Source: Methanobrevibacter sp. | Lineage (GTDB): Archaea > Methanobacteriota > Methanobacteria > Methanobacteriales > Methanobacteriaceae | Direction: 5' to 3' | Assembly: GCA_017434555.1 (NCBI GenBank) | Contig: JAFRFB010000060.1 | Location: forward strand, 1-35,518 | Length of the DNA: 35,518 nt | Part shown: one piece after another, positions 13,426 to 33,195 of the stretch | Layout: every line of letters begins with the position of its first letter | Numbering within the stretch: position 1 is the stretch's first letter | Translations under genes and position numbers: made by a program | Notes under the pieces: generated by a model | The model's input: only the letters and a program-made list of their open reading frames with translations | Databases searched by the model: none | Told to the model about the DNA's origin: nothing

Positions 13426-14449
13426 GATAAAAAATATTTATTATATGCTTTCATATGCATTTTATGCATTAAATGATGATAAATATAAGAAAGTTGAAAC
13501 AGAAGAGTTTGAAAATACTGCAGAACTTTTTGCAGAGATTTTAGCTATTGGTGTTTCAAAACAGATTAAACAGGGATTGGTTAAAGACTACATTGATGTA
13601 AGTGAGACCACTTCATCAATTAGAGGAAAAATTGAAATTACAGATTCAATCAATTCACAATCATTTTTAAAAAAGCAGTTAACATGCACTTATAATGAAT
13701 TTAGTGTAAATTGCTATTTAAATCAGATATTAAAGTCCACTATGTTAGTTTTGCTAAAATCAGATATTTCTTCTATTCAAAAGAAAAAACTAAAAAATAT
13801 TTTAAGGTATTTTACAGAAGTTGATTTGATAGATGTTAATTCAATAAATTGGAAAATACGATTTGACAGAAACAATCAAACTTATAGAATGCTGATTGGA
13901 GTTTGTTATTTGACCATCAAGGGGTTGCTTCAAAGTGAAAAGTCTGGTGAGACTAAATTGATGCAATTTATTGATGATCAATTAATGAATCGGTTGTATG
14001 AGAAGTTTATACTAAATTACTATAAAAAAGAGCACCCCTCTGTTAAAGCTAGCGCATCACAAATCAATTGGCAGCTGGATGACGGTATAGATTATCTGCT
14101 TCCAAGAATGCAGAGCGATATAATGCTTGAGTATGGAGATAAAGTTTTGATTATTGATGCTAAATATTACAAAAATACAACTCAAAGCTATTATAATACG
14201 AATACTATTCATTCAGGCAATTTATATCAGATTTTTACTTATGTTAAAAATAAACAGTTGGAAAACTGTGATTTGGAAGTTTCCGGAATGCTTCTTTATG
14301 CAAGGACTAATGAAGAGATTTTGCCCAATAACTCTTATCAAATGAGTGGGAATAAAATAAGCGTCAAGACTTTAGATTTAAATCAGGATTTTTATTTGAT
14401 TAAAGAGCAATTGGATGGAATTGTAGAGGATTATTTATATGGATATTGA
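13418..14449 (+). CDS. mcrC: McrC nuclease subunit
   Basis: A 343-residue McrC-like protein that activates the McrB GTPase and cuts DNA. The N-terminus 'IKIKNIYYMLSYAF' is the family's standard opening, followed by the DUF2357-like helical region. The C-terminal PD-(D/E)XK nuclease is visible: Asp234 in 'RMQSDIML' and Asp247-Ala-Lys249 in 'LIIDAKYYK'. There is no ATG at the family start; TTG 13418 gives exactly the expected N-terminus, with GTGAT about six bases ahead, while TTG 13412 would add two residues. The start overlaps the end of mcrB by 8 bases, which implies translational coupling. The gene ends by overlapping the next ATG by 11 bases. Confidence 0.87.
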   Translation: MIKIKNIYYMLSYAFYALNDDKYKKVETEEFENTAELFAEILAIGVSKQIKQGLVKDYIDVSETTSSIRGKIEITDSINSQSFLKKQLTCTYNEFSVNCYLNQILKSTMLVLLKSDISSIQKKKLKNILRYFTEVDLIDVNSINWKIRFDRNNQTYRMLIGVCYLTIKGLLQSEKSGETKLMQFIDDQLMNRLYEKFILNYYKKEHPSVKASASQINWQLDDGIDYLLPRMQSDIMLEYGDKVLIIDAKYYKNTTQSYYNTNTIHSGNLYQIFTYVKNKQLENCDLEVSGMLLYARTNEEILPNNSYQMSGNKISVKTLDLNQDFYLIKEQLDGIVEDYLYGY

Positions 14450-19845: not shown

Positions 19846-22800
19846 TTATTTCCATCCTATTCTTTCCATTTCTTTTTCGAATTTGGATAATAAATTTATA
19901 TCTAAATTTAATTCAATTAATATGTCTATTTTATTATCAATTTTATTTGTTATAATACGATTTATATAATTTTCAAAATATTTAAAATTGGATAATGCAT
20001 TAAATAACTTATTTTCATTAATTAAACCTTTAATCAAAATATTAATATTTGATTCAGTATTTGAAAGATAAGATATTAATATATCACTTTCAGTTTTTTC
20101 ATCATGTATTTTAATAGTTGTTTCATTAGGATTATAGTTATATAATTCTCTTTTTAATGTTGATATTGCTTTATCAAAATCCCTAACTCCCCATCTATAA
20201 TTATTTTTCAAAACTTCATCATATACTTTAAAAATATTTTCATTTGAAATGTATATTTTCTTTCCATTGATTTTTCTAGTAAAAACCCACATAGAAGAAG
20301 GTTTTTCTAACCATGCAAATCCTGTTTTACTTGGAATTGTAAATAATTCTTCATATTTGTTATTTAATGGTTTTAAAATATTCTCATATTCATTTGGAAG
20401 TATATTGAGGATTTCATCACATTCTTTAGGCATATTTTGTGGGATATTCCTTGTTGTTTTTGCATTTTTATTTTCTTGCAATGATTTAAATGCTTTATGT
20501 TTATCTCTTACTCCCCAAGTTAGTTTATGTTTACAAACTTCCTCAAATAATTCTTGAATACTTTCATTCCGAATATTATATGGCTTTTTATTTATATTTC
20601 TTGCATATGACCATTTTCCTCCAGAAAAATTAACCCATGCAAATCCTGTTTTACTCGGAGTAGTGAATTTTTCTTCAAATTTTTCTGGAAGTGGATCAAG
20701 AATATCCTTTGCTACAATTTCATCAGTATTATCCTGAGTTGGTGAATCATCTTCTATTAAGTCACCATATAACTTTAAGAATGTATCTATATTCCAATTA
20801 GGATTAGGGTGTTGTTGATTGCTTAATGTTTTGATAGCTTTTTCTTTATCTATTACACCCCAAATATTTCCACTTTCTAAAACTTTTTCAAATAATATAT
20901 ATAAATTTTCATCAGTTCTTTTAAATTGTTTTTTATCAATGCTTTTTGTGTAAATCCATTTATTTCCCACCTTATTTGTCCAACCAAAGCCAGTTCTATT
21001 ACTTTGAGTCGAATAATTGGCAATTGGTTTTAATAAATCTTTATATTTTTCATAATCAATATTTTTAGATGTATTTTCTGTATCTTTTAAATATGCATTT
21101 AGTTCAAGTTCTATTTCGGATTTTAACTTATTAATTTTTTTTATTTCATTATAAAAATTAACAAAAATTTCTCCAATATTTTGTTTTCCTCTGTTTATCC
21201 AATATGTATATGTATCATATGGAAAATCAACGATTTCACAGGCTTCTTTATCTGATTTTCCTTTAATCAATAATTTTAATATTTTATTCATTAATTTTAT
21301 AATACTTTGACTACCGATACTTTTTTCTTGTTTTACAGTTGGGTATTCACCAATTTGATTTAAAATTTTGGCTTCTATAAAATTATTATAAAAATCCTCT
21401 TCTTTACTTTCTAATTCATGTTTTACATTTTCATAATCTAAATTTGATTCATTACAAGCTTCTTTTATACTATATCCTTGTTTAATTAAATCAAAGAAAT
21501 TTACATCATATTCTTTACATTTAGTATAGAATTCTTTATAGTCTTCTTCACCAAGTCTTCCATATTCATACCATGACAAAATACTTTTTTCATAAGATCC
21601 ATTTTTATATTTTTTAGCAGCTTCTTGGATAGTTAATCCTTCGTTAATCATATTAATGATATTATTCTGTATTTCTTTGTCTTCATGTTCTTTAGTTATT
21701 TCACGTTTAATTTTAGTATATTTATTTAAAAAATCAGAAAATGGTTTTTTATTTTCTTTTCCATTTGAAAACCAATCGTTTAAAACATTTTTGTCTAGTG
21801 ATGCTTGTTTACATGAATCCTCATCACTCCATCCTTGTGAGATATATTCTAAAAATATTTTTCGTTTAGCATTGTTTAAATCACTTTCAAATTCTTTTAT
21901 AACATCATCATAGTCTTCTTTGTTTATTTGGTTGAATTGGTTTAAAAATTCGTTATATGGGATAATATTATTTTCACCTAGGATAATCCAATCATCAATT
22001 GTTTTTTTGTTAATAATATTGGATTTTTTGCAAGCTTCCTCAATATTTTTATTTTCTTTAAATGATTCTAAAAAATCATTATTTTGTTTTATAAGTTCTT
22101 TTAGTGAATATGCTTTAATTGTTCTTTCAATTTTACTTAATTTTTTATAAAAATCGATATTTTCTTTTCCAAATCCTTGTCTGCCTTCATTAAACCAATG
22201 GGTAATTTTATAAAGAGGAATATTTGCAATAATGGATGCTTCTTTTCTTGTTCTTTTTCGTGACATTGCATCTAAAACAATTTCTCTTTTATTTTCATTT
22301 GTTGTTTTTTTAGTTTCTTTAGTTTGTGAAGATTCAAGTGGAGTATCATATTCTTCTTTATAATACTTTTTAATAAATTTTAGTCCAGTTTTTTCATCTG
22401 TTAAAATATAATTTTGTGTATTAAATTTATTTTTAATCAAATCATTTTCAAGTAAATTCCAAATATTTCCTTTTAATTGGAATGTATCTTTAAAATATGC
22501 TTTTAAATCATTTTCGCTAAATTCATCTTCCCATTTTACATATTTATTTAACTGTTTTAAAAATACTGCTGATCTAATTAATTTTTTACATTTTTTACAA
22601 TTGTTTTCATATCCATCATCACTATTTTCACTACTATAAAAATTGGATATTTCTAATGTTTCGCCGCAGGTTTCACAAGTTTTATTTAATGAAACTGATG
22701 TTTTTTCATCTGTTTTAATTTCAAGATTGCACTCCTGAGCGAATTTATCTAAAGTATCTCTTGGTTTAAGAATATATTTGGAATTCTTTTTAGTAATTAG

Positions 22801-24234
22801 ATTAAATTCTTGTAATGTCCAGATATAGTCTTGAATTTGTAATTTTTTCAAATTAATTAATTTTAAATCGTCTTGTCTAAATGGAATTCCTGGGTCAATT
22901 GATGGTAATAACTTTTCAAGTATTGAAACTGCATATTGTTTTCTTAAACATCTTTTACAGATATTTTTTTCACTATTTTTATTCAAAGATCTGCCACATA
23001 TAGAACATTTATTAAGAGTTGTTTTTTCTTCTTTTTTGTTTTCTCCATATTCTAGTAGAGTTTTTTCTTTAACTTTAGATTTAGGAGTATTATTAATATT
23101 ATATGCTTGGTAAAAATTGTAATATTCACTATTACCTAGTTTTCCTTGATTAATCCAATTTTTAACTAAATATTGAGGAATATTTACTTCTTCGAGAGCT
23201 TCTTTATTAGTTTTCCCATTCTGTTTTAATTTAATAAATTCTTCCATTAGTGCATTGTTTTTAGATGTTTTATCTGAATTTTTAATTTTAGAAGTGCCTT
23301 TAATTTTCATATATTCATTGTAAAATCCATTATATTCACTAGATTTATCTTTTCCTTTTTCAATCCAAGAATTAAATTCATTTAAATCCAAATTTGATTT
23401 TTTCAATGAATCGTTTAATTTTTTATCTTTAGAATATTCATCTAAAAATACATTCATTTTTATAATATCCATTTTTGAAAGATTTTCATTAAAGTTTTTT
23501 GTTTTATTTTGACTAACAAGGTTATAGTAACTTGTCATTAAATTATCATTAGCTGTTTTTGAAACTCCTGAATTATTTAATTCATTGTATTTTTTATAAA
23601 ATTTAGCATATTTTTTGTCGTTATTTTTGCCAGATTCTAGCCATAAGTCTAGTTCTTCTTTTGTTATATTGGCAATTTTTAAAGATTCTTCAACAGTTTT
23701 ACCTGCTTTAATTGAATTTAAAAATAAATTTTCACGGGATACTGGTTTGATTTTTTCAATTTCTTTAATTAATTTTTCTATATTTTCAATGAAATTTCCA
23801 TTTATGTTTCCCAGGTCAATGGTTTCAACATTAATATATGTCCCTTGAAAGATGGCAGATTTTTTAATTGAGTAATTATTTAAATTAATATTCCTGTATT
23901 TTTTAATTAAAATATTTTTATCAACATATAGGTTATTTTTATTAATCATTCCTAAACAATTTTTATTATATATCTCATTTTTTGGAAAATCATAGATTAG
24001 AATATAATCTTCAAGAGAAACATCATCGGAGCTTGAATTAACAATACCGAATATATAGAAATATTTATTTTCATTTTCTGAATGTGCAAACCAGATTTTT
24101 CTACCTTTTGAGTAGAAAATTCTATTTATTTGCCCAATATTTTTTGTTTTATAAAATTTATCTATTTTCAAAGGATATTTGACTTTTAATTTTTTTAAGA
24201 ATTGTTCATGTTCTTTTTTAATTTTTTTAATCAT
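19846..24234 (-). CDS. Giant HTH-repeat/zinc-ribbon protein (protein A)
   Basis: A 1462-residue protein that I cannot assign to a characterised family. Residues 1-150 form an unrecognised mixed domain. Nine copies of a ~52-residue helix-turn-helix-like unit (three at 168-382, six at 650-1034) share 'G.T..EA....NI....V..W...GK......FY..Y..I'. Two zinc ribbons lie between (Cys410/413/426/429 and Cys520/523/546/549), each followed by a winged-helix-like stretch ('IPFRQDDL...IWTLQEFNLI' pattern). Three copies of a ~60-residue unit with 'TGFAW' and 'WGV.D..KA' follow (1078-1137, 1194-1252, 1301-1360). A helical tail with an acidic/Asn-rich composition ends it. The units resemble the DNA-binding part of phage terminase small subunits, so multivalent DNA binding is an inference. 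No catalytic motif is seen. It is divergent from the operon at 24412 and shares modules with protein B. Confidence 0.8.
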   Translation of the reverse strand: MIKKIKKEHEQFLKKLKVKYPLKIDKFYKTKNIGQINRIFYSKGRKIWFAHSENENKYFYIFGIVNSSSDDVSLEDYILIYDFPKNEIYNKNCLGMINKNNLYVDKNILIKKYRNINLNNYSIKKSAIFQGTYINVETIDLGNINGNFIENIEKLIKEIEKIKPVSRENLFLNSIKAGKTVEESLKIANITKEELDLWLESGKNNDKKYAKFYKKYNELNNSGVSKTANDNLMTSYYNLVSQNKTKNFNENLSKMDIIKMNVFLDEYSKDKKLNDSLKKSNLDLNEFNSWIEKGKDKSSEYNGFYNEYMKIKGTSKIKNSDKTSKNNALMEEFIKLKQNGKTNKEALEEVNIPQYLVKNWINQGKLGNSEYYNFYQAYNINNTPKSKVKEKTLLEYGENKKEEKTTLNKCSICGRSLNKNSEKNICKRCLRKQYAVSILEKLLPSIDPGIPFRQDDLKLINLKKLQIQDYIWTLQEFNLITKKNSKYILKPRDTLDKFAQECNLEIKTDEKTSVSLNKTCETCGETLEISNFYSSENSDDGYENNCKKCKKLIRSAVFLKQLNKYVKWEDEFSENDLKAYFKDTFQLKGNIWNLLENDLIKNKFNTQNYILTDEKTGLKFIKKYYKEEYDTPLESSQTKETKKTTNENKREIVLDAMSRKRTRKEASIIANIPLYKITHWFNEGRQGFGKENIDFYKKLSKIERTIKAYSLKELIKQNNDFLESFKENKNIEEACKKSNIINKKTIDDWIILGENNIIPYNEFLNQFNQINKEDYDDVIKEFESDLNNAKRKIFLEYISQGWSDEDSCKQASLDKNVLNDWFSNGKENKKPFSDFLNKYTKIKREITKEHEDKEIQNNIINMINEGLTIQEAAKKYKNGSYEKSILSWYEYGRLGEEDYKEFYTKCKEYDVNFFDLIKQGYSIKEACNESNLDYENVKHELESKEEDFYNNFIEAKILNQIGEYPTVKQEKSIGSQSIIKLMNKILKLLIKGKSDKEACEIVDFPYDTYTYWINRGKQNIGEIFVNFYNEIKKINKLKSEIELELNAYLKDTENTSKNIDYEKYKDLLKPIANYSTQSNRTGFGWTNKVGNKWIYTKSIDKKQFKRTDENLYILFEKVLESGNIWGVIDKEKAIKTLSNQQHPNPNWNIDTFLKLYGDLIEDDSPTQDNTDEIVAKDILDPLPEKFEEKFTTPSKTGFAWVNFSGGKWSYARNINKKPYNIRNESIQELFEEVCKHKLTWGVRDKHKAFKSLQENKNAKTTRNIPQNMPKECDEILNILPNEYENILKPLNNKYEELFTIPSKTGFAWLEKPSSMWVFTRKINGKKIYISNENIFKVYDEVLKNNYRWGVRDFDKAISTLKRELYNYNPNETTIKIHDEKTESDILISYLSNTESNINILIKGLINENKLFNALSNFKYFENYINRIITNKIDNKIDILIELNLDINLLSKFEKEMERIGWK
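20155..21003 (-). repeat. Three copies of a ~60-residue 'TGFAW...WGV' unit in protein A
   Basis: Units lie at 20824-21003, 20479-20655 and 20155-20334. Each has an aromatic 'KTGFAW' start, a 'W.(Y/F).R.I..K' strand, 'NE(N/S)' before an amphipathic helix, and 'WGVRD..KA...L' at the end. The pattern suggests a small alpha/beta binding module of unknown type. Confidence 0.7.
21133..22287 (-). repeat. C-terminal array of six HTH-like units in protein A
   Basis: Residues 650-1034 carry six ~52-residue units (starts near 650, 719, 791, 856, 912, 980). The fifth is degenerate and lacks the tryptophan. Signature residues are 'EA' in helix 1, 'W' in helix 2, then 'G(K/R)' and 'FY'. Confidence 0.7.
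22393..23007 (-). repeat. Paired zinc-ribbon module of protein A shared with protein B
   Basis: Residues 410-614 align end to end with residues 139-342 of protein B. Shared are four-Cys ribbon, 'LEKLLPSIDPGIPFRQDDL' versus 'LEEIIPITGVGIPFKKEDL', 'IWTLQ(E/D)FNL', second four-Cys ribbon, and 'GNIWNLLENDLI' versus 'GKIFNLQDNDLI'. Confidence 0.75.
23089..23733 (-). repeat. N-terminal array of three HTH-like units in protein A
   Basis: Residues 168-382 carry three units, for example 'IKAGKTVEESLKIANITKEE' followed by 'LDLWLESGK' and 'KFYKKYNEL'. They share the signature of the six-unit C-terminal array. Confidence 0.7.
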
Positions 24235-24290
24235 AAAATAACCAGTTTATATTAATTTAATAATAATTTTATATTACTCAGTATTTATTT

Positions 24291-24406
24291 TTATTTAAAT
24301 GATTTTATTCAGTTAAATTCGATTTTTAATGTAAATTATTTGTTTAAATCAACGAATTTATATAATTAATTTTATAAGGTGTGATAAACTTATATTAATA
24401 TAGGTG
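24291..24406. promoter_or_regulatory. Divergent promoter region between protein A and the operon
   Basis: For the plus strand, TTTATATAA (24357-24365) fits a TATA box and AGGTG at 24402-24406 is the Shine-Dalgarno site, five bases before ATG 24412. For the minus strand, the complement of 24290-24300 reads as TTTAAATAA-like, about 60 bases before ATG 24234. The whole control region for both sides is only 177 bases, so the two arms can be co-regulated. Confidence 0.5.
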
Positions 24407-24411
24407 TTAAT

Positions 24412-24834
24412 ATGGAAGATAAATTCAAGGATTTCTATGATACTTTAATTGAAAATTTAGAATCATATAATGGAGAATATGCTTCTTTTATAGATTGTGG
24501 TCCTAATTTATTTAAATTGCTTTGTGATGTATTAGATCAGGATATTAAAAGAGAATTAAGATTAGATGTCTGTGGTGCAATTGCTTATTATGTTGTTCCA
24601 ATGGATATTATTCCTGAGCAAGTTTATGGTCCTTATGGTTATATTGATGATATTTTCATGTCTGTTTATGCTTTACAAAGAGTAGCGGATGAATATGGTT
24701 ATGATTTCCTTCAAAATATTTGGGAATATGATAATAATATTAAAGATGTGATGGATGACTGTTATGAAAAGTCAATTGAAGTCTTAGAAGAAGATGATAT
24801 TAAAGCTATTTTAACTTATACTGGTTTGGAATAA
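24412..24834 (+). CDS. DUF1232 (YkvA-like) domain protein
   Basis: A 140-residue protein whose central part (about 55-85) carries the DUF1232 signature: 'CGAIAYYVVPMDIIPEQVYG' and then 'GYIDDIFMSVYALQRV'. This matches the family's pattern of 'aL.Yli.P.DlIPd...GyiDD'. Family members are small, often membrane-associated or stress-linked proteins without a defined activity; here the hydrophobic part is short. The flanks are acidic helices. It starts the operon, 57 bases ahead of the next ATG. It may fill the place that a TerB-type protein takes in related ATPase-helicase loci, which is an inference. Confidence 0.72.
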   Translation: MEDKFKDFYDTLIENLESYNGEYASFIDCGPNLFKLLCDVLDQDIKRELRLDVCGAIAYYVVPMDIIPEQVYGPYGYIDDIFMSVYALQRVADEYGYDFLQNIWEYDNNIKDVMDDCYEKSIEVLEEDDIKAILTYTGLE

Positions 24835-24857
24835 TTTATATTGCATAATTAATAAAC

Positions 24858-24873
24858 AGGAGGGTTTTAAATA
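24858..24873 (+). promoter_or_regulatory. Strong Shine-Dalgarno site pointing to an ATA codon
   Basis: AGGAGGG (24858-24864) lies six bases before ATA at 24871, which is in frame with the gene listed from 24892 and directly follows an in-frame TAA (24868-24870). The first in-frame ATG is 27 bases from the site. The sequence may use ATA as start, giving an N-terminus 'SNNVNEM' ahead of the listed Met. Confidence 0.5.
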
Positions 24874-24891
24874 TCAAATAATGTAAATGAG

Positions 24892-26109
24892 ATGATGATT
24901 GAACAAACAATTGTTGATTTATCAGAACATATTGATATTTCTGAAGGTTTTAAAAAAGAAGATTTGGAGGATTTTTTCAATGAAAATAAAATTGAGAGTT
25001 CGCTAAATCTTTTAATAGAAAATAATTTACTTTTTGAAGAAGAAGGTAACTTTTATTTTGATGAAGAAGTAATCGATCAATTTAATGCTCAAATGGATAA
25101 CTTAAATGATGAAGAAGTTAATAGTGATTCAGATAAACAAGAATCCAGTGAAAGCGATTCTATTCAAGAAGAAAATGAACCTTTAAATACAAGATCTAAG
25201 GAAGTTTTATCTATATCTGATATTTCTATTCAACACGAAACTGAAGAAAATACTATAAAATACTCTAAAAGTAAAACTTTAGATGATTTTGCTGATAAGT
25301 CTGATAAACCAGCGGATTTTGAATCTAAATTGTCTATGGTTCGAGAAAAATCAGAAAAAAATGTTGATAACTCTAGATATTGGATTCATAAAACAGATTT
25401 TTCTATTTTGGAGGATATTCATAAATTAAACCAAATAGGTTCTGAAAAACCTAAATCTAAATATATCAAAGAAATTAAACCTAATGATTATATTTTATTG
25501 ATTGTAAATAATAGGGGTCATTTGGACTTTTTTGGTTTAACAAAAGTTGATGAAATTATAAATATTGAAAAACGAGATAATTCTGATTTTTATAAATATT
25601 ATAAATCTGATATTCAGTTAAAATTAAAATCAATCAGGTACTTTAATAATCCTATTGTTGGTGCCGATATTGATAATGAGTTATCATTCGTTGAGAAAAA
25701 TAAGAAAATATCTTCTTATATTAAAACAGATTATAAAGAAATTCCGAAAGATGATTTTAAAAAGATTATGAAACATGGACACTTTATAAAGTCATTTCCA
25801 GCATATTTCGACAGTGTTGATTTAAATTTAAAGGAATTTTTAATGAATTCTATATTATATTTATATAATAACTTAAAAAACAAACAAAAATCTGAATTAA
25901 TTGAGATTAAAGTATTTTTGCAAAAATTGCAGGAGTTTGTTGCTAAATTAGGTGTTAAATTAGATTATGAGTATCTTGTTGAATTTTATTCTTGGAATGC
26001 AATTGAATTGGAATTTACACATGTGCCATATAGGGATCCTGATAAGGCTATTCCATTATATGATACAAGGGGAAAGAAAAAAGAATATGCATATATTGAT
26101 TTAAAATAA
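24892..26109 (+). CDS. Winged-helix-like and EVE-like domain protein of the ATPase-helicase operon
   Basis: A 405-residue protein (412 if the ATA at 24871 is the start, which the strong AGGAGGG site favours). Residues 5-55 look like a winged helix ('FKKEDLEDFFNENKI', 'LLIENNLLFEEEGNFYFD'). An acidic Ser-rich linker follows (60-130). Residues 160-290 resemble an EVE/PUA-type reader domain ('SRYWIHKTDFSILEDI', 'IKPNDYILLIVNNRG', 'DFFGLTKVDEI'), and the C-terminus is helical. EVE-like folds bind modified bases in DNA or RNA, so this could be the recognition subunit; this assignment is by pattern only. It lies 13 bases before the ATPase gene. Confidence 0.6.
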   Translation: MMIEQTIVDLSEHIDISEGFKKEDLEDFFNENKIESSLNLLIENNLLFEEEGNFYFDEEVIDQFNAQMDNLNDEEVNSDSDKQESSESDSIQEENEPLNTRSKEVLSISDISIQHETEENTIKYSKSKTLDDFADKSDKPADFESKLSMVREKSEKNVDNSRYWIHKTDFSILEDIHKLNQIGSEKPKSKYIKEIKPNDYILLIVNNRGHLDFFGLTKVDEIINIEKRDNSDFYKYYKSDIQLKLKSIRYFNNPIVGADIDNELSFVEKNKKISSYIKTDYKEIPKDDFKKIMKHGHFIKSFPAYFDSVDLNLKEFLMNSILYLYNNLKNKQKSELIEIKVFLQKLQEFVAKLGVKLDYEYLVEFYSWNAIELEFTHVPYRDPDKAIPLYDTRGKKKEYAYIDLK

Positions 26110-26122
26110 TTGGGGAATTTGT

Positions 26123-27385
26123 ATGAATTATGAATATATACTTAGTGCTTTAAAAAACGGAATTGTTCCAGAAAGTGGAACTAGAGACTTTTGTTTAGGT
26201 CGTGACAATGAGATAGCAGAATTTGAAAGATTACTTTCAGAAATTGATACAAAAGAAAAATCTCATGTTAAATTTATAAAAGGTGAATTTGGTGCGGGTA
26301 AATCTTTCTTTTTAAAAGTTATTGAAGAGATGGCATTTGACCAGAATTTTGTTGTATCATGGGTTACTTTAGGTAATGATGTTCACTTTAATAAAATTGA
26401 TGTTGTTTATAGAAATATTGTAAATAAATTAAGATGTAAAACTGGTACTTCTCTAGACCATATTATTGACAGATGGATTACTGGATTAAAAATGATGGCA
26501 TTTGAAGAAACATCTGACCCGGTAAAACAGAATAATTTGGTTAAAGAGAATTTATATTCTGATTTGGCAAATACCAGAGAACATGCTAATGCTTTTGCTG
26601 TAGCTATTGAAAACTATAACCGATTAATGAATGAAGAAGATTATAAAACTGCTGAATATGCAAAAGCATGGCTGCGTGGTGATGCTAATATTCCATTTAG
26701 TGAAAAAAGAAAATTTGGAGTAAAAGGTGATGTGGATAAACATAATGCATTAAACTTTTTAGAAGCATTATCCGTTTTTGTTAAATCAATTGGATACTCT
26801 GGTTTAGTAGTTCTTTTTGATGAAGCAGAATCTATCATGGATATTCCTAGAAAAGATTTAAGAAATACTGCATATGATTATATAAGAACTATGTTTGATA
26901 ACTGTGATTTAGGAAAATTCCATAATTCATTATTTGTTTTTGCCGGAACTCCACCATTATTTGATGATTCTAAAAAAGGTATTGTTTCATATACGGCATT
27001 ACATGATAGAATCAAATCTATGTTAGATACTGACTTAACAGATATGAGACGTCCAATTTTTGAACTAAAAGGTTTCACTGAAGAAGATTTAGTTGAAATT
27101 GCAGGTAAATTAATGATTATGCACGAAGAAGCTTATGGCTGGAATGCAAGTGATAAAATAACTCCTGCTATTAATGATATCGTTGGAATTCATGCTAATA
27201 ATGCGAGGTTAACTGGGGGTAGAGTTACTCCAAGAACTTTCATTCGTTCATTTGTTAGTGTGTTAGATACAGTTCAGCAAAATCAAACATTCTTCAATGA
27301 TTCAAATCAAATTATTGAGTTATTTGATGAACAAGAAAATAATTTAGAAGATGATATTGACGATATTTTCGATGATGATTGGTAA
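26123..27385 (+). CDS. DUF2791 P-loop ATPase, BrxD-like
   Basis: A 420-residue ATPase of the DUF2791 family, which includes BrxD of type 2 BREX. The opening 'ALKNGIVPESGTRDFCLGRD' is typical, Walker A is 'GEFGAGKS' (54-61) followed by 'FFLKVIEEMA', a family block 'VSWVTLGNDVHFNKIDVVY' comes next, and Walker B is 'LVVLFDEAES' (228-237). The C-terminal domain ends in a very acidic tail ('DDIDDIFDDDW'). GGGGA at 26112-26116 gives the start. In known loci this ATPase sits beside an Lhr-like helicase (BrxHI) or a TerB protein, and the helicase is indeed next, 10 bases away. It probably forms a motor or clamp loading the helicase; no other BREX core gene is present here. Confidence 0.85.
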   Translation: MNYEYILSALKNGIVPESGTRDFCLGRDNEIAEFERLLSEIDTKEKSHVKFIKGEFGAGKSFFLKVIEEMAFDQNFVVSWVTLGNDVHFNKIDVVYRNIVNKLRCKTGTSLDHIIDRWITGLKMMAFEETSDPVKQNNLVKENLYSDLANTREHANAFAVAIENYNRLMNEEDYKTAEYAKAWLRGDANIPFSEKRKFGVKGDVDKHNALNFLEALSVFVKSIGYSGLVVLFDEAESIMDIPRKDLRNTAYDYIRTMFDNCDLGKFHNSLFVFAGTPPLFDDSKKGIVSYTALHDRIKSMLDTDLTDMRRPIFELKGFTEEDLVEIAGKLMIMHEEAYGWNASDKITPAINDIVGIHANNARLTGGRVTPRTFIRSFVSVLDTVQQNQTFFNDSNQIIELFDEQENNLEDDIDDIFDDDW

Positions 27386-27395
27386 AGGTTAATTT

Positions 27396-29618
27396 ATGAC
27401 AGATAATCTTATTTCAAGTTTAGATAATCGCCTAATGTATTTTTTATCAGAACAATTGGGCTGGAATGATTTAAATTCAATTCAAAATAAAGCTATTCCT
27501 AACGTTTTGGATAATAAAGACACGTTAATCTTGGCTCCAACTGCTTCAGGTAAAACTGAAGCTGCATTAATTCCAATATTTAATGATATTCTCACTAAAG
27601 GTCATGATCCATTAAGCGTTCTTTATGTTTCTCCGTTAAAGGCATTAATTAATGATATGTTTAATCGTATTGAGCGATGGGCAGATTATTTCGACTTAAC
27701 TGTTACAAAATGGCATGGCGATGTTACTAAATCTGAAAAAGATAAGTTTGTTAAAAATCCTACTGATTTTTTATGTATAACTCCAGAATCTCTTGAAGTA
27801 ATATTAATGAATAAAAATTTTGATGATAAAGAAAATATTTTTTCTAATATTAAATTCATTTTAATCGATGAAATTCATTATTTTGCTGATTCTGATAGGG
27901 GAATACAGCTTAATTCATTATTAAATCGGATTAAAAAATATACTTCAGATAATGTTGTTACAGTTGGTCTTTCAGCTACGGTAGGTAATCCTGATTTAAT
28001 TGCAGAATGGGTTAATCCTAATAATCCTGCAGATATTATTAGAGATACTTCGGGTCGTCAATTAAAATATCTTGTTTTACCATTTAATGAGTATAATATT
28101 CATATTCCATTAAAACGTTTTAAAGACCGTAAAGTATTAATTTTTGTTAACTCACGAGCAACAGCAGAGTTAGCTTTTAGAACTTTAAAAGATAATTTAA
28201 ATTTAAAAAATATTTATATTCACCACGGTTCTATTAATAAAGAGACTCGTGAAGAAAATGAACGAAAATTCAAAGAGGATGCTGGTGGATTTATGGTGTC
28301 AACTTCTACTTTAGAGTTGGGAATTGATATTGGTGATATAGATGTTGTTGTTCATTTAAACCCACCTTATAGTGTAAGTTCATTTTCCCAAAGAATCGGT
28401 CGTAGTGGACGTAGGTCGAAGGTACAAAGAACCATAATCCTTTCACAAGGAATGAATTTAATTGTAGCATTAGCGGAATTGATATTGTATTTTGAAAACA
28501 AAGTTGAAGAAATTAGTATTTCAACACACTCAAAAGATATATTTTTCCATCAATTACTTAGTTCTACTTTTGAAAAAGGTAGAGTGCATGCTAAAGAATT
28601 ATATAATGAACTAAAAGATTGCTATGCATTTTCTGATATTAGTTATGAAGACTGTAAAAATCTACTTAAATTCATGGAAGAACAGGAATTTGTCGATATT
28701 AATCAAGGTTATATTAGTTTAGGATATAATTTTGAAAAAACTTTTGGAAAAAGAAATTTCATGGAATTTTTTGCCGTATTTTATCCAAGTTATGAATATA
28801 AAATTTTTGAAGGAAGAACAGAAGTTGGAGGTTTAGATGTTTCATTTGCAACAAACTTAGATGTTGGGGATGAATTTGTATTGGCAGGTAAATTATGGAA
28901 AGTAACTTCTATTAGTCATGATAATTATAGAATAAGTGTTTCTAAAATGCCAAATGCTAAAAAAATTGTTCCTAAATGGGTTTCTGATGGTCCTGCACTT
29001 CCTTATTTAATATCACGTAAAGTATATGAAATATTGCTAGGTAATTTTGATAAAAATTATTTAAAATATTTTAAAAAAGGCACTGGAGATTATATTAAGG
29101 ATTTAATTTCTAAAGCAAGTGAATATGGTTTTTCTAAAGATCTAATTCCAGTTAATATTGATTCTAAATCAAAAGAAGTTACAATATATACATTTGCAGG
29201 AGATAAAGCTAATAGGCTTTTAATGAAGCTATTTAATTTATATCATGATACTTATCTTGAAATGGTAACTCCTTTCTTTATATCATTTAAAGTTCGAGGA
29301 AATGAAATATCTGAATCAGATATTGAAAATCTGATTTATAGTGTTGAAGATATTTTAAATGAGGAAAATATTGAGCTTTTAATTGATGAAGTAAGTAAAG
29401 AATTTAAGAAAAATAAATTTATTAATTATTTATCTCCTCAGGATAGGGCAGATTTAAAAATGAATTTATTCTTTAATCGTGAAGGATTAATAGATTTATG
29501 TAAAAATAACATGGTTTATTTCATATCAAAATCATCATTTAAAGAAGAATACTTGAATGAGGTAATGAAATTTGTTAATAATGAAGATAATGAAATAAAG
29601 GTTTTAGAAGATGGTTAA
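27396..29618 (+). CDS. Lhr-like superfamily 2 helicase, BrxHI-like
   Basis: A 740-residue ATP-dependent helicase. Visible motifs: Q region 'LNSIQNKAIP', Walker A 'APTASGKT' (47-54), 'VSPLKALINDMFNR' (Ia), 'DEIH' (158-161), 'GLSATVGN' (191-198), 'VLIFVNSRATAELA' (IV), 'STLELGIDIGDID' (V) and 'QRIGRSGRRS' (332-341). This is the Lhr/COG1201 type; the C-terminal 400 residues are a winged-helix and beta-rich extension shorter than in full Lhr. The pairing with a DUF2791 ATPase just upstream is that of brxD-brxHI in type 2 BREX and TerB loci. An AAAGGTT site precedes ATG 27396. It overlaps the next gene by 8 bases. Confidence 0.87.
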   Translation: MTDNLISSLDNRLMYFLSEQLGWNDLNSIQNKAIPNVLDNKDTLILAPTASGKTEAALIPIFNDILTKGHDPLSVLYVSPLKALINDMFNRIERWADYFDLTVTKWHGDVTKSEKDKFVKNPTDFLCITPESLEVILMNKNFDDKENIFSNIKFILIDEIHYFADSDRGIQLNSLLNRIKKYTSDNVVTVGLSATVGNPDLIAEWVNPNNPADIIRDTSGRQLKYLVLPFNEYNIHIPLKRFKDRKVLIFVNSRATAELAFRTLKDNLNLKNIYIHHGSINKETREENERKFKEDAGGFMVSTSTLELGIDIGDIDVVVHLNPPYSVSSFSQRIGRSGRRSKVQRTIILSQGMNLIVALAELILYFENKVEEISISTHSKDIFFHQLLSSTFEKGRVHAKELYNELKDCYAFSDISYEDCKNLLKFMEEQEFVDINQGYISLGYNFEKTFGKRNFMEFFAVFYPSYEYKIFEGRTEVGGLDVSFATNLDVGDEFVLAGKLWKVTSISHDNYRISVSKMPNAKKIVPKWVSDGPALPYLISRKVYEILLGNFDKNYLKYFKKGTGDYIKDLISKASEYGFSKDLIPVNIDSKSKEVTIYTFAGDKANRLLMKLFNLYHDTYLEMVTPFFISFKVRGNEISESDIENLIYSVEDILNEENIELLIDEVSKEFKKNKFINYLSPQDRADLKMNLFFNREGLIDLCKNNMVYFISKSSFKEEYLNEVMKFVNNEDNEIKVLEDG

Positions 29619-32600
29619 CTGTAAATATTGTGGTGAAAGTACATCAAATAAAAATGCAATCTGTAATAATTGTAAAAATAAATTAAATGCTAAAAAATAT
29701 TTAAAAGCTGTGCTAGTTAATTTTAAGCCTGATGAGGTTTTTTCTAAAAGGAATTTGGGATTGTATTTAGATAAATCATTTAATGTCGATATTGTTCTTT
29801 TAACACTGAATGATTATGGTATGGTTGTAAGAAGAGGATCTCATGGATATAAATTAGCAACAAAAAAAGCTATTGATGAATTTTTATCACAGGAAGATTT
29901 AACTCAAATTAAATCTAAAAAAACTAAAAAATCTTCTAGACGTAAATCTAAAAAGAAATCTAAGTTAAAATCATCTAATATTAAAAAAGATTCCTTTAAT
30001 AATGAACCCAAAGTCATTAAAAAATGTAAAATTTGTGGTACGGATTTACCTCCAAATTCCAAAAATGATATTTGTAGAAAATGTAGTAAAAAAGCACACG
30101 CATTAAATGTTCTAGAAGAGATTATTCCAATTACTGGTGTAGGAATACCTTTTAAAAAAGAAGATTTGGATAATTTATATAATAATAATCCTATTAAATC
30201 TAATGATACAATTTGGACATTACAAGATTTTAATTTAGTAAAATCTATTGATACTAATACATTTGAATTAGTATCTGAAGGCAAATTAGACCAATTTTTT
30301 AAAGAAAATAATAGTTCAAATACAGTTTCTGATTTACTTTCAAAAACATCATCCAAAACATTACAAAAAACTTGTTTAAAATGTAATAAAGCATTATCTA
30401 TCTCAGAATTTAGAAAAATATCTGAAGATGAATATAGTGATTATTGTAAGAGTTGTGATAAAAAAATTAGAACTGCTAGTTATGCCATTGAATTTATAGA
30501 CTGTGTTGGATTCAAAGAATTTAAAATAAGCGATGTTAACATTGAAAATGCTCAGGGTAAAATATTTAACTTGCAAGATAATGACTTGATATCATTTAAT
30601 GGAAATTCTTATCAATTAGTTGATGAAGAAATTGTTTATTCATATATTAATCATAATACTGATGATAACGCTCAATTTGAAAATATTTTGGAAGCATTTA
30701 AAGAAGATGTAACGATGATACAAGCAGCTAAGAGTGTTGGCGTATCAAATGTTGAAGTTACAAAGTATTATATTGAGGGTAAAAACGGTAACCCTAAGTA
30801 TGTTCATTTTTTCAATGAAATAAATACAATTAAATTTAATAAACTTGAAAAAATGCCTTGTCCTAAATGTAAATCAAAATCAGGTTACTATAAAAATGGT
30901 AAATGTAAAAAATGCGGCTATGTAAATATTTCTTTATTATCTCTTGATAAAAAAATGGATTTTGTCCTATCACACATTAGAGAAAATAATAGCGTCAAAT
31001 CTGCAAAAGAATTGGATATTCCATATGATAATGTTAAAAATTGGAATAAATTAGGAAAAGCTGGACTTTCACCTTATGATAAATTTTATAAAGGAATTAT
31101 CAATATTAAAGAAGAAAGTAAAGAAAATGCAATTAAAAGAAATAAAATTGATCCTATAGAAGAGAGATTAAATGGATATCTTAGAAAAATACAAAGTACT
31201 GAATTAACTTTAGATAAAAATATTATTAAATTAAAAAGTATTGATTTAGATAATAAAAAAATTAAATCTGAATATGATGAAATTTATTCTGAAATAAATA
31301 TCATGAAAAATGACTTGATTTTCCAAAAGAATGAGATAAAATCTATTAAAGATAGTTTAATGGATTATTCTATTGATGAATTGGATAATATTAAATCATT
31401 TGATATAAAAGGCACAAGATCTATTTCTCTAAAAGTCAATAAATTACTTAAGAAAAATGATGAATATACTATAAAACAAGTTAATAAATATATTTCTAAA
31501 TTAGAAAATCAAATAATGCTAATTAAAGTAAATATCAAAGTTTCTGATAGTAATCTATTAAAATTAGAAAAAACAAGTTTTGTAGATTCTTTGAAGAATG
31601 AAAGTATTGAATTAATTGATTCCATTACAGAGTATAAGTCATATTTAAATAAAAAAAATAAATTAATAGATGAAAAAATATCTGATTTGAAATCTAAAAA
31701 TATATCTTTTGATTTAGATGAAATAAAAATTAATTTCAATGATTATTCATTCATGGTTGATGTTTTAATTTCAAAAAATAAGAATCTTATTTCTAAACAA
31801 ATGGAAATGATAATAACGAATCTTGATGAAAACAAAGAACTTAATCAAATTTATGTTGATTTAGGAATTTCATCTGATGATGCAAAATCATGGTATGATT
31901 TAGGTAAATTCGGAAATAAAGACTATATAAAATTTTATGATAAAATTAATGAATATAATGATAAAAAAGAAAAATTAATCTCTGAAAAATCTAAAAATAA
32001 TCTGATTGAAGAATTAGAAAAAGAATTGGAAAATACTAATGAATTAATTACAGATTTACATATTAATAGTTATAATTTATCTAAGATATTTGTCATGGAA
32101 TCGTTAGAATCCGATATATTGAGTATATCTGATGAAACTGAAGATTTAAAGTTAAAATTAAATAATTACAAATCAGCTATTGAAGAAAATTTATCTAACA
32201 TGAAAGAAAATCATGGTTCTGAAATAACAATAGATTATATAGATTTTTCAGCTGAAATAGAAAATTTAATTTCAAGAAGTAAAAAAATAATTTCAACAAA
32301 TGAAAAATTAATCTCAGAAAAGCTCAATAAAAACACTGATACAAAAAATAAAAATGAAGATGTATCTCAAGTTAAACATCTTTCAAATCGGAGTAATTCA
32401 TATACTCGAGGGCAAAAATATCCTAAAAAAGTGTCTAAAAGAAGATATAAGGCTAAGCTTATTAAAGAATATGAAAATAAAAAGATTGTTATATCTGATG
32501 AACTTGAAAAGTTAAATAAAGATATTACAAAATTAAATGATTTTGATTTGGATAAATCATTAAATTATTCCAAATCTAAATTAATTCGTGAATTATATAC

Positions 32601-33195
32601 ATATAAAACAAATTTAATTAATTATTCCAAATCTATTGATATATATTTATTAAATATTAAAAATAATGATGATTATTCAAATTTTTATATTGAAGAATTT
32701 GAATTTATGGATTATTCAAATAAGATAAATGAGTTGATTTCACAATCAAAAGAATCTAATTCAAATTCTATAAAGCATAAGAATTTGAATGATTTAAATA
32801 AAATATCTTCTTTTGATAAAAAAATTGAAGAAACAAATAATAAAAATAATTCCTCCGGAGTATTGAATAAATTAATTAATAAATTTAAAGAAAATTCATC
32901 TGAAGAGTCTAGCATGAAATTAAATGAAAAAAGTTCTTCTAATGAGTCTAATGTTGATTTAAATAAAGAAAGTCCAACGGAAAACAAACTCCAAAATTCT
33001 AATAATGAATCTAAGAATGAATCTCAAGAGGAATTAGTTTTAAAATATTATAAAGAAACAAAAGATTTGGTAAAAGCTTCTAATCTTGCTAATGTTCCAC
33101 TATTTTTAGTTAAATTTTGGTATAATGAAGGTAAAAAAGGCAAACAACAATATATTGATTTTTATAATCAAATGAAGAAAATTGAAAAACTATGA
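29611..33195 (+). CDS. Zinc-ribbon, HTH-unit and coiled-coil protein (protein B)
   Basis: A 1194-residue protein, partial paralogue of protein A. An N-terminal ribbon (Cys4/7/18/21) and winged-helix-like domain (28-95) lead to a very basic Lys/Ser linker (101-127). The shared module follows with two ribbons (Cys139/142/155/158 and Cys255/258/279/282), then a further ribbon (Cys417/420/432/435) and four HTH-like units (about 354-408, 447-500, 750-790 and 1142-1194). Residues 505-1020 are largely long coiled coils, interrupted by the third unit. The last unit ('YKETKDLVKASNLANVPLF') is the clearest. No enzyme motif is seen. It overlaps the helicase gene and ends 15 bases before rpoA1. A scaffold that binds DNA and the motor proteins is my inference. 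Confidence 0.8.
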   Translation: MVNCKYCGESTSNKNAICNNCKNKLNAKKYLKAVLVNFKPDEVFSKRNLGLYLDKSFNVDIVLLTLNDYGMVVRRGSHGYKLATKKAIDEFLSQEDLTQIKSKKTKKSSRRKSKKKSKLKSSNIKKDSFNNEPKVIKKCKICGTDLPPNSKNDICRKCSKKAHALNVLEEIIPITGVGIPFKKEDLDNLYNNNPIKSNDTIWTLQDFNLVKSIDTNTFELVSEGKLDQFFKENNSSNTVSDLLSKTSSKTLQKTCLKCNKALSISEFRKISEDEYSDYCKSCDKKIRTASYAIEFIDCVGFKEFKISDVNIENAQGKIFNLQDNDLISFNGNSYQLVDEEIVYSYINHNTDDNAQFENILEAFKEDVTMIQAAKSVGVSNVEVTKYYIEGKNGNPKYVHFFNEINTIKFNKLEKMPCPKCKSKSGYYKNGKCKKCGYVNISLLSLDKKMDFVLSHIRENNSVKSAKELDIPYDNVKNWNKLGKAGLSPYDKFYKGIINIKEESKENAIKRNKIDPIEERLNGYLRKIQSTELTLDKNIIKLKSIDLDNKKIKSEYDEIYSEINIMKNDLIFQKNEIKSIKDSLMDYSIDELDNIKSFDIKGTRSISLKVNKLLKKNDEYTIKQVNKYISKLENQIMLIKVNIKVSDSNLLKLEKTSFVDSLKNESIELIDSITEYKSYLNKKNKLIDEKISDLKSKNISFDLDEIKINFNDYSFMVDVLISKNKNLISKQMEMIITNLDENKELNQIYVDLGISSDDAKSWYDLGKFGNKDYIKFYDKINEYNDKKEKLISEKSKNNLIEELEKELENTNELITDLHINSYNLSKIFVMESLESDILSISDETEDLKLKLNNYKSAIEENLSNMKENHGSEITIDYIDFSAEIENLISRSKKIISTNEKLISEKLNKNTDTKNKNEDVSQVKHLSNRSNSYTRGQKYPKKVSKRRYKAKLIKEYENKKIVISDELEKLNKDITKLNDFDLDKSLNYSKSKLIRELYTYKTNLINYSKSIDIYLLNIKNNDDYSNFYIEEFEFMDYSNKINELISQSKESNSNSIKHKNLNDLNKISSFDKKIEETNNKNNSSGVLNKLINKFKENSSEESSMKLNEKSSSNESNVDLNKESPTENKLQNSNNESKNESQEELVLKYYKETKDLVKASNLANVPLFLVKFWYNEGKKGKQQYIDFYNQMKKIEKL
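30025..30636 (+). repeat. Paired zinc-ribbon module of protein B shared with protein A
   Basis: Residues 139-342 match residues 410-614 of protein A in cysteine positions and in 'GIPF(R/K)', 'IWTLQ(E/D)FNL' and 'LL/LQ.NDLI' blocks. The two copies lie on opposite strands about 7 kb apart, too diverged for recent duplication by eye. Confidence 0.75.

What the first reader, a model, noticed from the sequence alone, without database searches (positions are those of the whole stretch)
19846..33195. Candidate undescribed system built on a BrxD/BrxHI-like pair and two HTH/zinc-ribbon giants
The sequence shows a DUF2791 ATPase and an Lhr-like helicase adjacent in one operon, with a DUF1232 protein, an EVE-like protein and two huge proteins that share modules. 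The pair is established knowledge as an accessory of type 2 BREX and TerB loci, yet no PglX methylase, PglZ, PglW kinase, PglY or TerB gene is visible. Inference: A and B serve as multivalent nucleic-acid sensors or scaffolds, the EVE-like protein as reader, and the ATPase-helicase as motor; the effector would be unwinding itself or a nuclease supplied by a neighbour.
Basis: partly seen in the sequence, partly recalled or inferred. Interest (0 to 1): 0.85.

Follow-up and report, generated by a model that had tools for sequence, protein, structure and literature searches.

The report
Methanogen EVE–BrxD–helicase putative defence cassette
In methane-making archaea, a motor pair known from two bacterial anti-phage systems (an ATPase plus a helicase) is always found beside a modified-base-reader protein, and usually beside a giant zinc-ribbon/DNA-binding protein; this looks like an undescribed, probably defensive gene cassette whose first gene seems to start with the abnormal codon AUA or AUU.

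Summary
The genes are real and placed as described. Window 19846-33195 encodes giant A (-), a DUF1232 protein, an EVE-domain protein, a BrxD-type AAA+ ATPase, a BrxHI/Lhr-type helicase and giant B. This is a conserved cassette, not a chance cluster. Of 152 genomes of the phylum, 21 have a full BrxD-type ATPase and all 21 have this EVE protein beside it. The ATPase and helicase each form their own clade, separate from BREX types 2/6 and from Shango (SngABC). PglZ was not found in 12 host genomes. No TerB protein was found, though the genome-wide SngA search had no positive control. It is therefore neither BREX nor a demonstrated Shango member. The EVE domain is confirmed by profile and predicted fold. 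A/B-like giants accompany most copies, but their zinc-ribbon/winged-helix module and the DUF1232 gene also occur without the pair, so they are a second, portable module. Unexpectedly, most EVE genes have their best ribosome-binding site before an in-frame AUA or AUU, not AUG. Best reading: a new variant of the BrxD-BrxHI motor systems, probably anti-mobile-element, with EVE as reader, giant A as docking scaffold and BrxD loading the helicase. No nuclease is encoded; function is untested.

The parts
19846..24234 (-). Giant A, 1462 aa: HTH-like repeats (168-381, 650-1035), two zinc-ribbon/winged-helix modules (406-500, 515-623), three AP2-like repeats (1081-1360), C-terminal domain (1380-1462)
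   Evidence: one homologue, usually divergent, in most cassettes
24412..24834 (+). DUF1232 protein, 140 aa; partner of zinc-ribbon/HTH proteins, not obligatory for the ATPase-helicase pair
   Evidence: PF06803 1.8e-8
24857..24864 (+). Shine-Dalgarno CAGGAGGG, 6 nt before ATA
   Evidence: duplex -10.5 kcal/mol
24871..24873 (+). Probable start codon ATA of the EVE gene (the first ATG is 24892)
24871..26109 (+). EVE protein: N-terminal winged-helix-like segment, EVE/YTH-type domain, C-terminal helical domain
   Evidence: linked to BrxD in 21 of 21 genomes
26123..27385 (+). BrxD-type (ORC/Cdc6-like) AAA+ ATPase, Walker A GEFGAGKS, Walker B VVLFDEAE
27396..29618 (+). BrxHI/Lhr-like SF2 helicase, motifs I-VI intact
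29611..33195 (+). Giant B, 1194 aa: three zinc-ribbon/winged-helix modules (3-93, 134-231, 250-347), four HTH-like repeats; overlaps the end of the helicase gene by 8 nt
   Evidence: second gene of this type only in G096

Best explanation
An autonomous cassette of Methanobacteriales, most likely anti-mobile-element defence. It combines a conserved trio, EVE reader + BrxD-type AAA+ loader + BrxHI-type helicase, with a portable DUF1232 + zinc-ribbon/HTH giant module. Proposed mechanism (inference): the EVE domain recognises a modified or abnormal base; the giant docks on DNA through its many HTH, zinc-ribbon and AP2-like modules and concentrates the complex there; BrxD, an ORC/Cdc6-like ATPase, loads the helicase at the marked site; translocation and unwinding block replication or transcription of the invader, or expose single strands to host nucleases. 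The trio's first gene appears to be throttled by an AUA/AUU start codon. Shown: gene content, linkage, separate clades, EVE fold, intact ATPase and helicase motifs, the start-codon pattern as a sequence feature. Inferred: every functional step.
For: EVE and BrxD co-occur in 21 of 152 genomes (hypergeometric 7e-25, related genomes not independent), adjacent wherever the contig allows. Both motors have intact motifs. ATPase and helicase trees each give one clade for the cassette (98/99 and 100/100), beside BREX 2/6 with moderate support, Shango outside. Homologues act in anti-phage systems: Shango, tested in P. aeruginosa (PMC10250203), and type 2 BREX, whose BrxD is proposed as loader of BrxHI (PMC12839542). 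Neighbours are often restriction-type genes: McrBC-like (window; G160), GmrSD (G138), Eco57I-type methylase plus an integrase-like gene (G105), AAA-PDDEXK_9 (G152), HSDR_N and methylase (Spirochaetales MAG). Patchy in mesophiles: 2 of 37 genomes of the window's genus in the first sample. EVE fold: 2p5d TM 0.77 of target.
Against: No nuclease or modification enzyme travels with it. In one thermophilic-looking family 7 of 8 genomes keep it (the eighth has a remnant) at a conserved place; HerA and NurA genes lie beside it in L032, which fits host DNA maintenance too. G160 lacks the helicase and G153 lacks a nearby giant. No relative in viral contigs or, for BrxD, in phage records. No functional data.
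Confidence: 0.5

Rival explanations
1. Host DNA-maintenance module: an ORC/Cdc6-like loader with an Lhr-like helicase and an EVE reader works at stalled forks, breaks or transcription complexes of the host chromosome.
For: Nearly universal and at a conserved place in family f2; HerA and NurA genes adjacent in L032; no nuclease or methylase; absent from viral contigs.
Against: Patchy in the window's own family, next to restriction genes in several unrelated loci, and motor homologues are defence parts.
Confidence: 0.27
2. A derived Shango or type 2 BREX system in which TerB (SngA) or PglZ/PglX was replaced by the EVE protein and giants.
For: Same ATPase-helicase dyad; PADLOC scores SngB 4e-66, BrxD 2e-77, SngC 3e-127, BrxHI 6e-152; the trees place it next to BREX 2/6.
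Against: No PglZ in 12 hosts; no SngA hit (control silent); profile-profile comparison of SngA with EVE, DUF1232 or giants gives nothing (shallow profile); separate clade in both trees.
Confidence: 0.15
3. Giants A/B and DUF1232 belong to a different module, for example transcriptional or nucleoid proteins, that only neighbours the EVE-BrxD-helicase trio.
For: DUF1232 next to a zinc-ribbon/HTH protein recurs in about 14 genomes without BrxD; a related giant is fused to TFIIB repeats; G153 has the trio without a nearby giant.
Against: A high-scoring giant lies next to the trio in 17 of the 18 loci where the contig is long enough to judge, in two families and varied gene orders; the window EVE protein itself carries a similar winged-helix segment (E=3e-4).
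Confidence: 0.25

Closest known systems
Shango (SngA TerB protein, SngB ATPase, SngC helicase)
   Same: Adjacent DUF2791/BrxD-type ATPase and Lhr-like helicase in one operon; no nuclease within the three genes
   Different: No TerB-domain protein detected; EVE reader and zinc-ribbon/HTH giant instead; motors form a separate clade
Type 2 BREX (Pgl): BrxD and BrxHI dyad
   Same: Homologous dyad, gene order BrxD then helicase; nearest clade in both trees with moderate support
   Different: No PglZ; no PglX, PglW or PglY seen in the window; type 2 BREX is reported absent from archaea (PMC12839542)
DUF499 systems (BREX-Related): ORC/Cdc6-like ATPase, SNF2 helicase-nuclease, methylase, often a standalone EVE protein in archaea
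   Same: Same logic: ORC/Cdc6-type ATPase + SF2 helicase + standalone EVE (PMC7641849)
   Different: Different ATPase and helicase families; here no methylase and no nuclease
EVE-McrBC type IV restriction
   Same: EVE domain as presumed modified-base reader; a McrB/McrC pair with EVE-like N-terminus sits upstream at 10822-14449
   Different: Not a McrB/McrC pair; no nuclease partner

Membership tests
Type 2 BREX | PglZ phosphatase/nuclease | tested here: not met
   PF08665 absent in 12 host genomes, controls ring in 4
Type 2 BREX | PglX methylase, PglW, PglY in the locus | tested here: not met
   No such hits among the window proteins scanned or the cassette neighbours scanned; not searched genome-wide
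Type 2 BREX | BrxD + BrxHI dyad inside the BREX clade | tested here: not met
   Dyad present but in its own clade, sister to BREX 2/6 with moderate support
Shango | SngA with TerB_N/TerB/TerB_C | tested here: inconclusive
   PDLC03958 no hit in 12 genomes but control silent; no TerB Pfam hit among the window proteins scanned; hhalign prob <1% with a 3-sequence profile
Shango | SngB and SngC homologues adjacent | tested here: met
   SngB 4.1e-66, SngC 2.6e-127; but separate clade
EVE/YTH (PUA superfamily) readers | EVE fold | tested here: met
   2p5d E=1.2e-12 by sequence profile; TM 0.77 of target by fold
EVE/YTH (PUA superfamily) readers | binding of a modified base | not testable with these tools
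   needs a binding assay
DUF499 BREX-Related systems | DUF499 ATPase, N6-methylase, SNF2-type helicase | tested here: not met
   No DUF499 or methylase in the cassette; the helicase is Lhr/BrxHI-like
Anti-phage defence system | protection against phage, virus or plasmid | not testable with these tools
   only homology and genomic context available

The most novel reading that the evidence does not exclude
A third autonomous class of BrxD-BrxHI systems, so far seen essentially only in Methanobacteriales, in which an EVE reader replaces TerB or PglZ/PglX logic, a rapidly rebuilt zinc-ribbon/HTH/AP2 giant supplies docking, and expression is gated by a conserved AUA/AUU start codon. Since archaeal aIF1 disfavours non-canonical starts, the operon could be tuned by, or respond to, disturbed translation initiation.
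Probability: 0.35. Interest if true: 0.8.

Novelty: new variant of a known kind. Interest (0 to 1): 0.6.

Why it matters
It shows that the BrxD-BrxHI motor pair works outside BREX and outside TerB-type Shango, pairs it with a modified-base reader, and brings it to methanogens, where few defence systems are studied. Finding the same pair in a third setting makes it testable what the pair itself does. Some carriers are probably cultivable thermophilic methanogens (probably Methanothermobacter; inference), so deletion is realistic. The conserved AUA/AUU start would be a rare case of programmed non-AUG initiation in archaea.

Tried and rejected
TerB-like domain hidden in DUF1232, the EVE protein or the giants: no support by hhalign, and the best structural matches of the EVE model are to its EVE part. 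A hidden nuclease in A/B: no domain found; fold search of three zinc-ribbon/winged-helix modules gave only weak winged-helix matches, none below 0.001. Rfam: nothing. tRNA: none. Viral or phage carriage: none. EVE on plasmids: none. Naming the organisms: 'Methanothermobacter' for family f2 is an inference from order, genome size, 46-50% GC and a pseudomurein-binding protein; a PDB identity search gave nothing.

Full report
WHAT IS THERE. The window (contig C120 of a 3.15 Mb genome of the order Methanobacteriales; nearest named relatives are Methanobrevibacter MAGs) holds, at the coordinates given: giant A (19846-24234, -), a DUF1232 protein (24412-24834), an EVE protein (24892-26109, probably from 24871), a BrxD-type ATPase (26123-27385), a BrxHI/Lhr-type helicase (27396-29618) and giant B (29611-33195), then rpoA1 six bases on. 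From EVE to B the genes are 13 nt apart, 10 nt apart, and overlapping by 8 nt, so they look like one operon. Domain identities: PF10923 1.3e-95, helicase PF00270 1e-36 with Lhr winged helix, DUF1232 1.8e-8; PADLOC BrxD 1.8e-77 / SngB 4.1e-66 and BrxHI 5.7e-152 / SngC 2.6e-127.

EVE. Pfam alone is sub-threshold (E=0.07), but the profile of nine homologues finds the solved archaeal EVE proteins 2p5d (1.2e-12) and 1wmm (1.4e-4). The predicted model (pLDDT 85) matches 2p5d (TM 0.77 of the target), 2hd9 and many YTH m6A readers. It carries an extra C-terminal helical domain that gave no strong match of its own among the best hits. In the window the protein also has an N-terminal segment resembling the winged-helix part of A/B (E=3e-4).

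GIANTS. A and B share modules (38% identity over about 230 aa, E=2.7e-28). Profiles built here find in A nine HTH-like repeats, two zinc-ribbon/winged-helix modules, three AP2-like repeats and a C-terminal domain; in B three zinc-ribbon/winged-helix modules and four HTH-like repeats. Shuffled controls gave 0-2 hits per 340 sequences. The HTH and AP2 profiles were built mainly from A and B, so their scores there are circular; the hits in the giants of other genomes are not. The name 'AP2-like' is by eye. Three modules of B fold with confidence (pLDDT 86), but no solved structure matches below E=0.001.

CONSERVATION. Synteny: in G021 and in seven genomes of another family (f2) the same DUF1232, giant, EVE, ATPase and helicase genes lie together. 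Phylum-wide, 152 genomes: strong BrxD in 21, strong EVE in the same 21 plus G144, whose EVE is cut by a contig end. Hypergeometric P=7e-25 treats genomes as independent, which they are not: f2 members are near copies; about seven genera of two families remain. A high-scoring giant is adjacent in 17 of the 18 cassettes that can be judged; G153 has none nearby and the others are cut by contig ends. DUF1232 is adjacent in about two thirds. B-type second giants occur only in G000 and G096. G045 keeps only the helicase and the 3' end of BrxD. G160 lacks the helicase.

WHAT IS NOT SPECIFIC. The zinc-ribbon/winged-helix module is found in 47 of 152 genomes, about 27 of them without BrxD, mostly at weaker scores in proteins of 320-1050 aa. 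The DUF1232 family is in 34 genomes, and in about 14 without the pair it lies next to a zinc-ribbon/HTH-repeat protein. So DUF1232 + zinc-ribbon/HTH protein is a portable two-gene module, and the trio EVE-BrxD-helicase is the other module.

PHYLOGENY AND MEMBERSHIP. With Shango, BREX 2/6 and other relatives from plasmids, both ATPase and helicase trees put all cassette copies in one clade (98/99; 100/100), next to BREX 2/6 with moderate support (91/84; 90/88), Shango outside. The sampling outside archaea is small. PglZ is absent from 12 hosts. SngA is not found (control silent) and not related by profile (shallow profile). Hence neither BREX nor demonstrated Shango. The published survey of BREX reports no type 2 BREX in archaea and suggests that BrxD loads BrxHI (PMC12839542). 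The EVE survey describes a similar logic in archaea: EVE with DUF499 (ORC/Cdc6-like) and an SNF2 helicase-nuclease (PMC7641849). I found no description of this cassette in the held library; most subscription papers are not held.

CONTEXT. Restriction-type neighbours: McrB/McrC upstream in the window, McrBC-like genes in G160, GmrSD in G138, AAA-PDDEXK_9 in G152, Eco57I-type methylase and an integrase-like gene in G105, HSDR_N and a methylase in a Spirochaetales MAG. In the f2 locus L032, HerA and NurA genes lie beside it. No relatives in viral contigs, nor of BrxD in phage records.

START CODON. In most EVE genes the only strong Shine-Dalgarno (-7 to -10.5 kcal/mol) sits 4-9 nt before an in-frame ATA or ATT. 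Nine of the loci examined have no ATG/GTG/TTG at all before the conserved W-x-H motif, and in the window and G096 the canonical codons before it have only weak Shine-Dalgarno matches. All 15 BrxD genes in the same loci have their best site before ATG. In f2 the codons just upstream of the first ATG vary mainly at third positions and conserve protein. I score 14 of 17 EVE against 0 of 15 BrxD genes (Fisher 1.5e-6; 9 of 12 against 0 of 12 lineages, 3e-4; the sorting into classes was mine). Of 600 random ATA/ATT in the window only 2 have a site of -8 or better. aIF1 is reported to disfavour non-canonical starts in archaea (PMC6237735). Translation from these codons is not shown.

MECHANISM. Best supported: reader (EVE) + docking scaffold (giant) + loader (BrxD) + helicase; target foreign or abnormal DNA; outcome blocked replication or exposure to host nucleases. 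Homology and context support defence at about even odds; host maintenance is the main rival. All steps beyond intact motifs and fold are inference.

Noticed in passing
window:24857-24891; L029, L030-L036, L091, L092, L096, L097, L098, L100, L101: EVE genes appear to start at AUA or AUU with a strong Shine-Dalgarno, in many separate lineages, while neighbouring BrxD genes use ATG.
   Followed up: partly
window:33202-35517; G000 C68 (L051), C96 (L053), C89 (L052): rpoA1 is duplicated: the copy in the window follows the cassette, a second 5' copy beside the rpoB genes has an in-frame TGA and 17/401 mismatches, and a changed 3' copy is fused to an unrelated ORF; C89 carries a normal-looking 3' part. 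Insertion between rpoB and rpoA1 with gene duplication, or an assembly mix.
   Followed up: partly
L206-L221: DUF1232 gene beside a zinc-ribbon/HTH-repeat protein of about 880 aa in many genomes without BrxD, often near SseB-like and AAA genes.
   Followed up: partly
L129:19-3087: A zinc-ribbon/winged-helix giant fused to TFIIB repeats (PF00382 6.5e-22), hinting at a transcription link of this protein family.
   Followed up: no
L106:12589-17983; L062:267-4928: A different, deep-branching cassette with two BrxD-like ATPase genes and a helicase in a cyanobacterial plasmid and a Desulfobacterales contig.
   Followed up: no
window:10822-19822: McrB (with EVE-like N-terminal stretches) and McrC followed by unassigned genes, a SWIM zinc-finger protein and a DUF2779/Cas4-like protein.
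   Followed up: no
L037 (G045): Deletion remnant: intact helicase and the last part of BrxD remain at the conserved place.
   Followed up: yes
L060: EVE-BrxD-helicase trio in a Spirochaetales MAG next to restriction genes; transfer or binning error unresolved.
   Followed up: partly
L098, L099: EVE protein with two tandem EVE-type units in genus g23.
   Followed up: no
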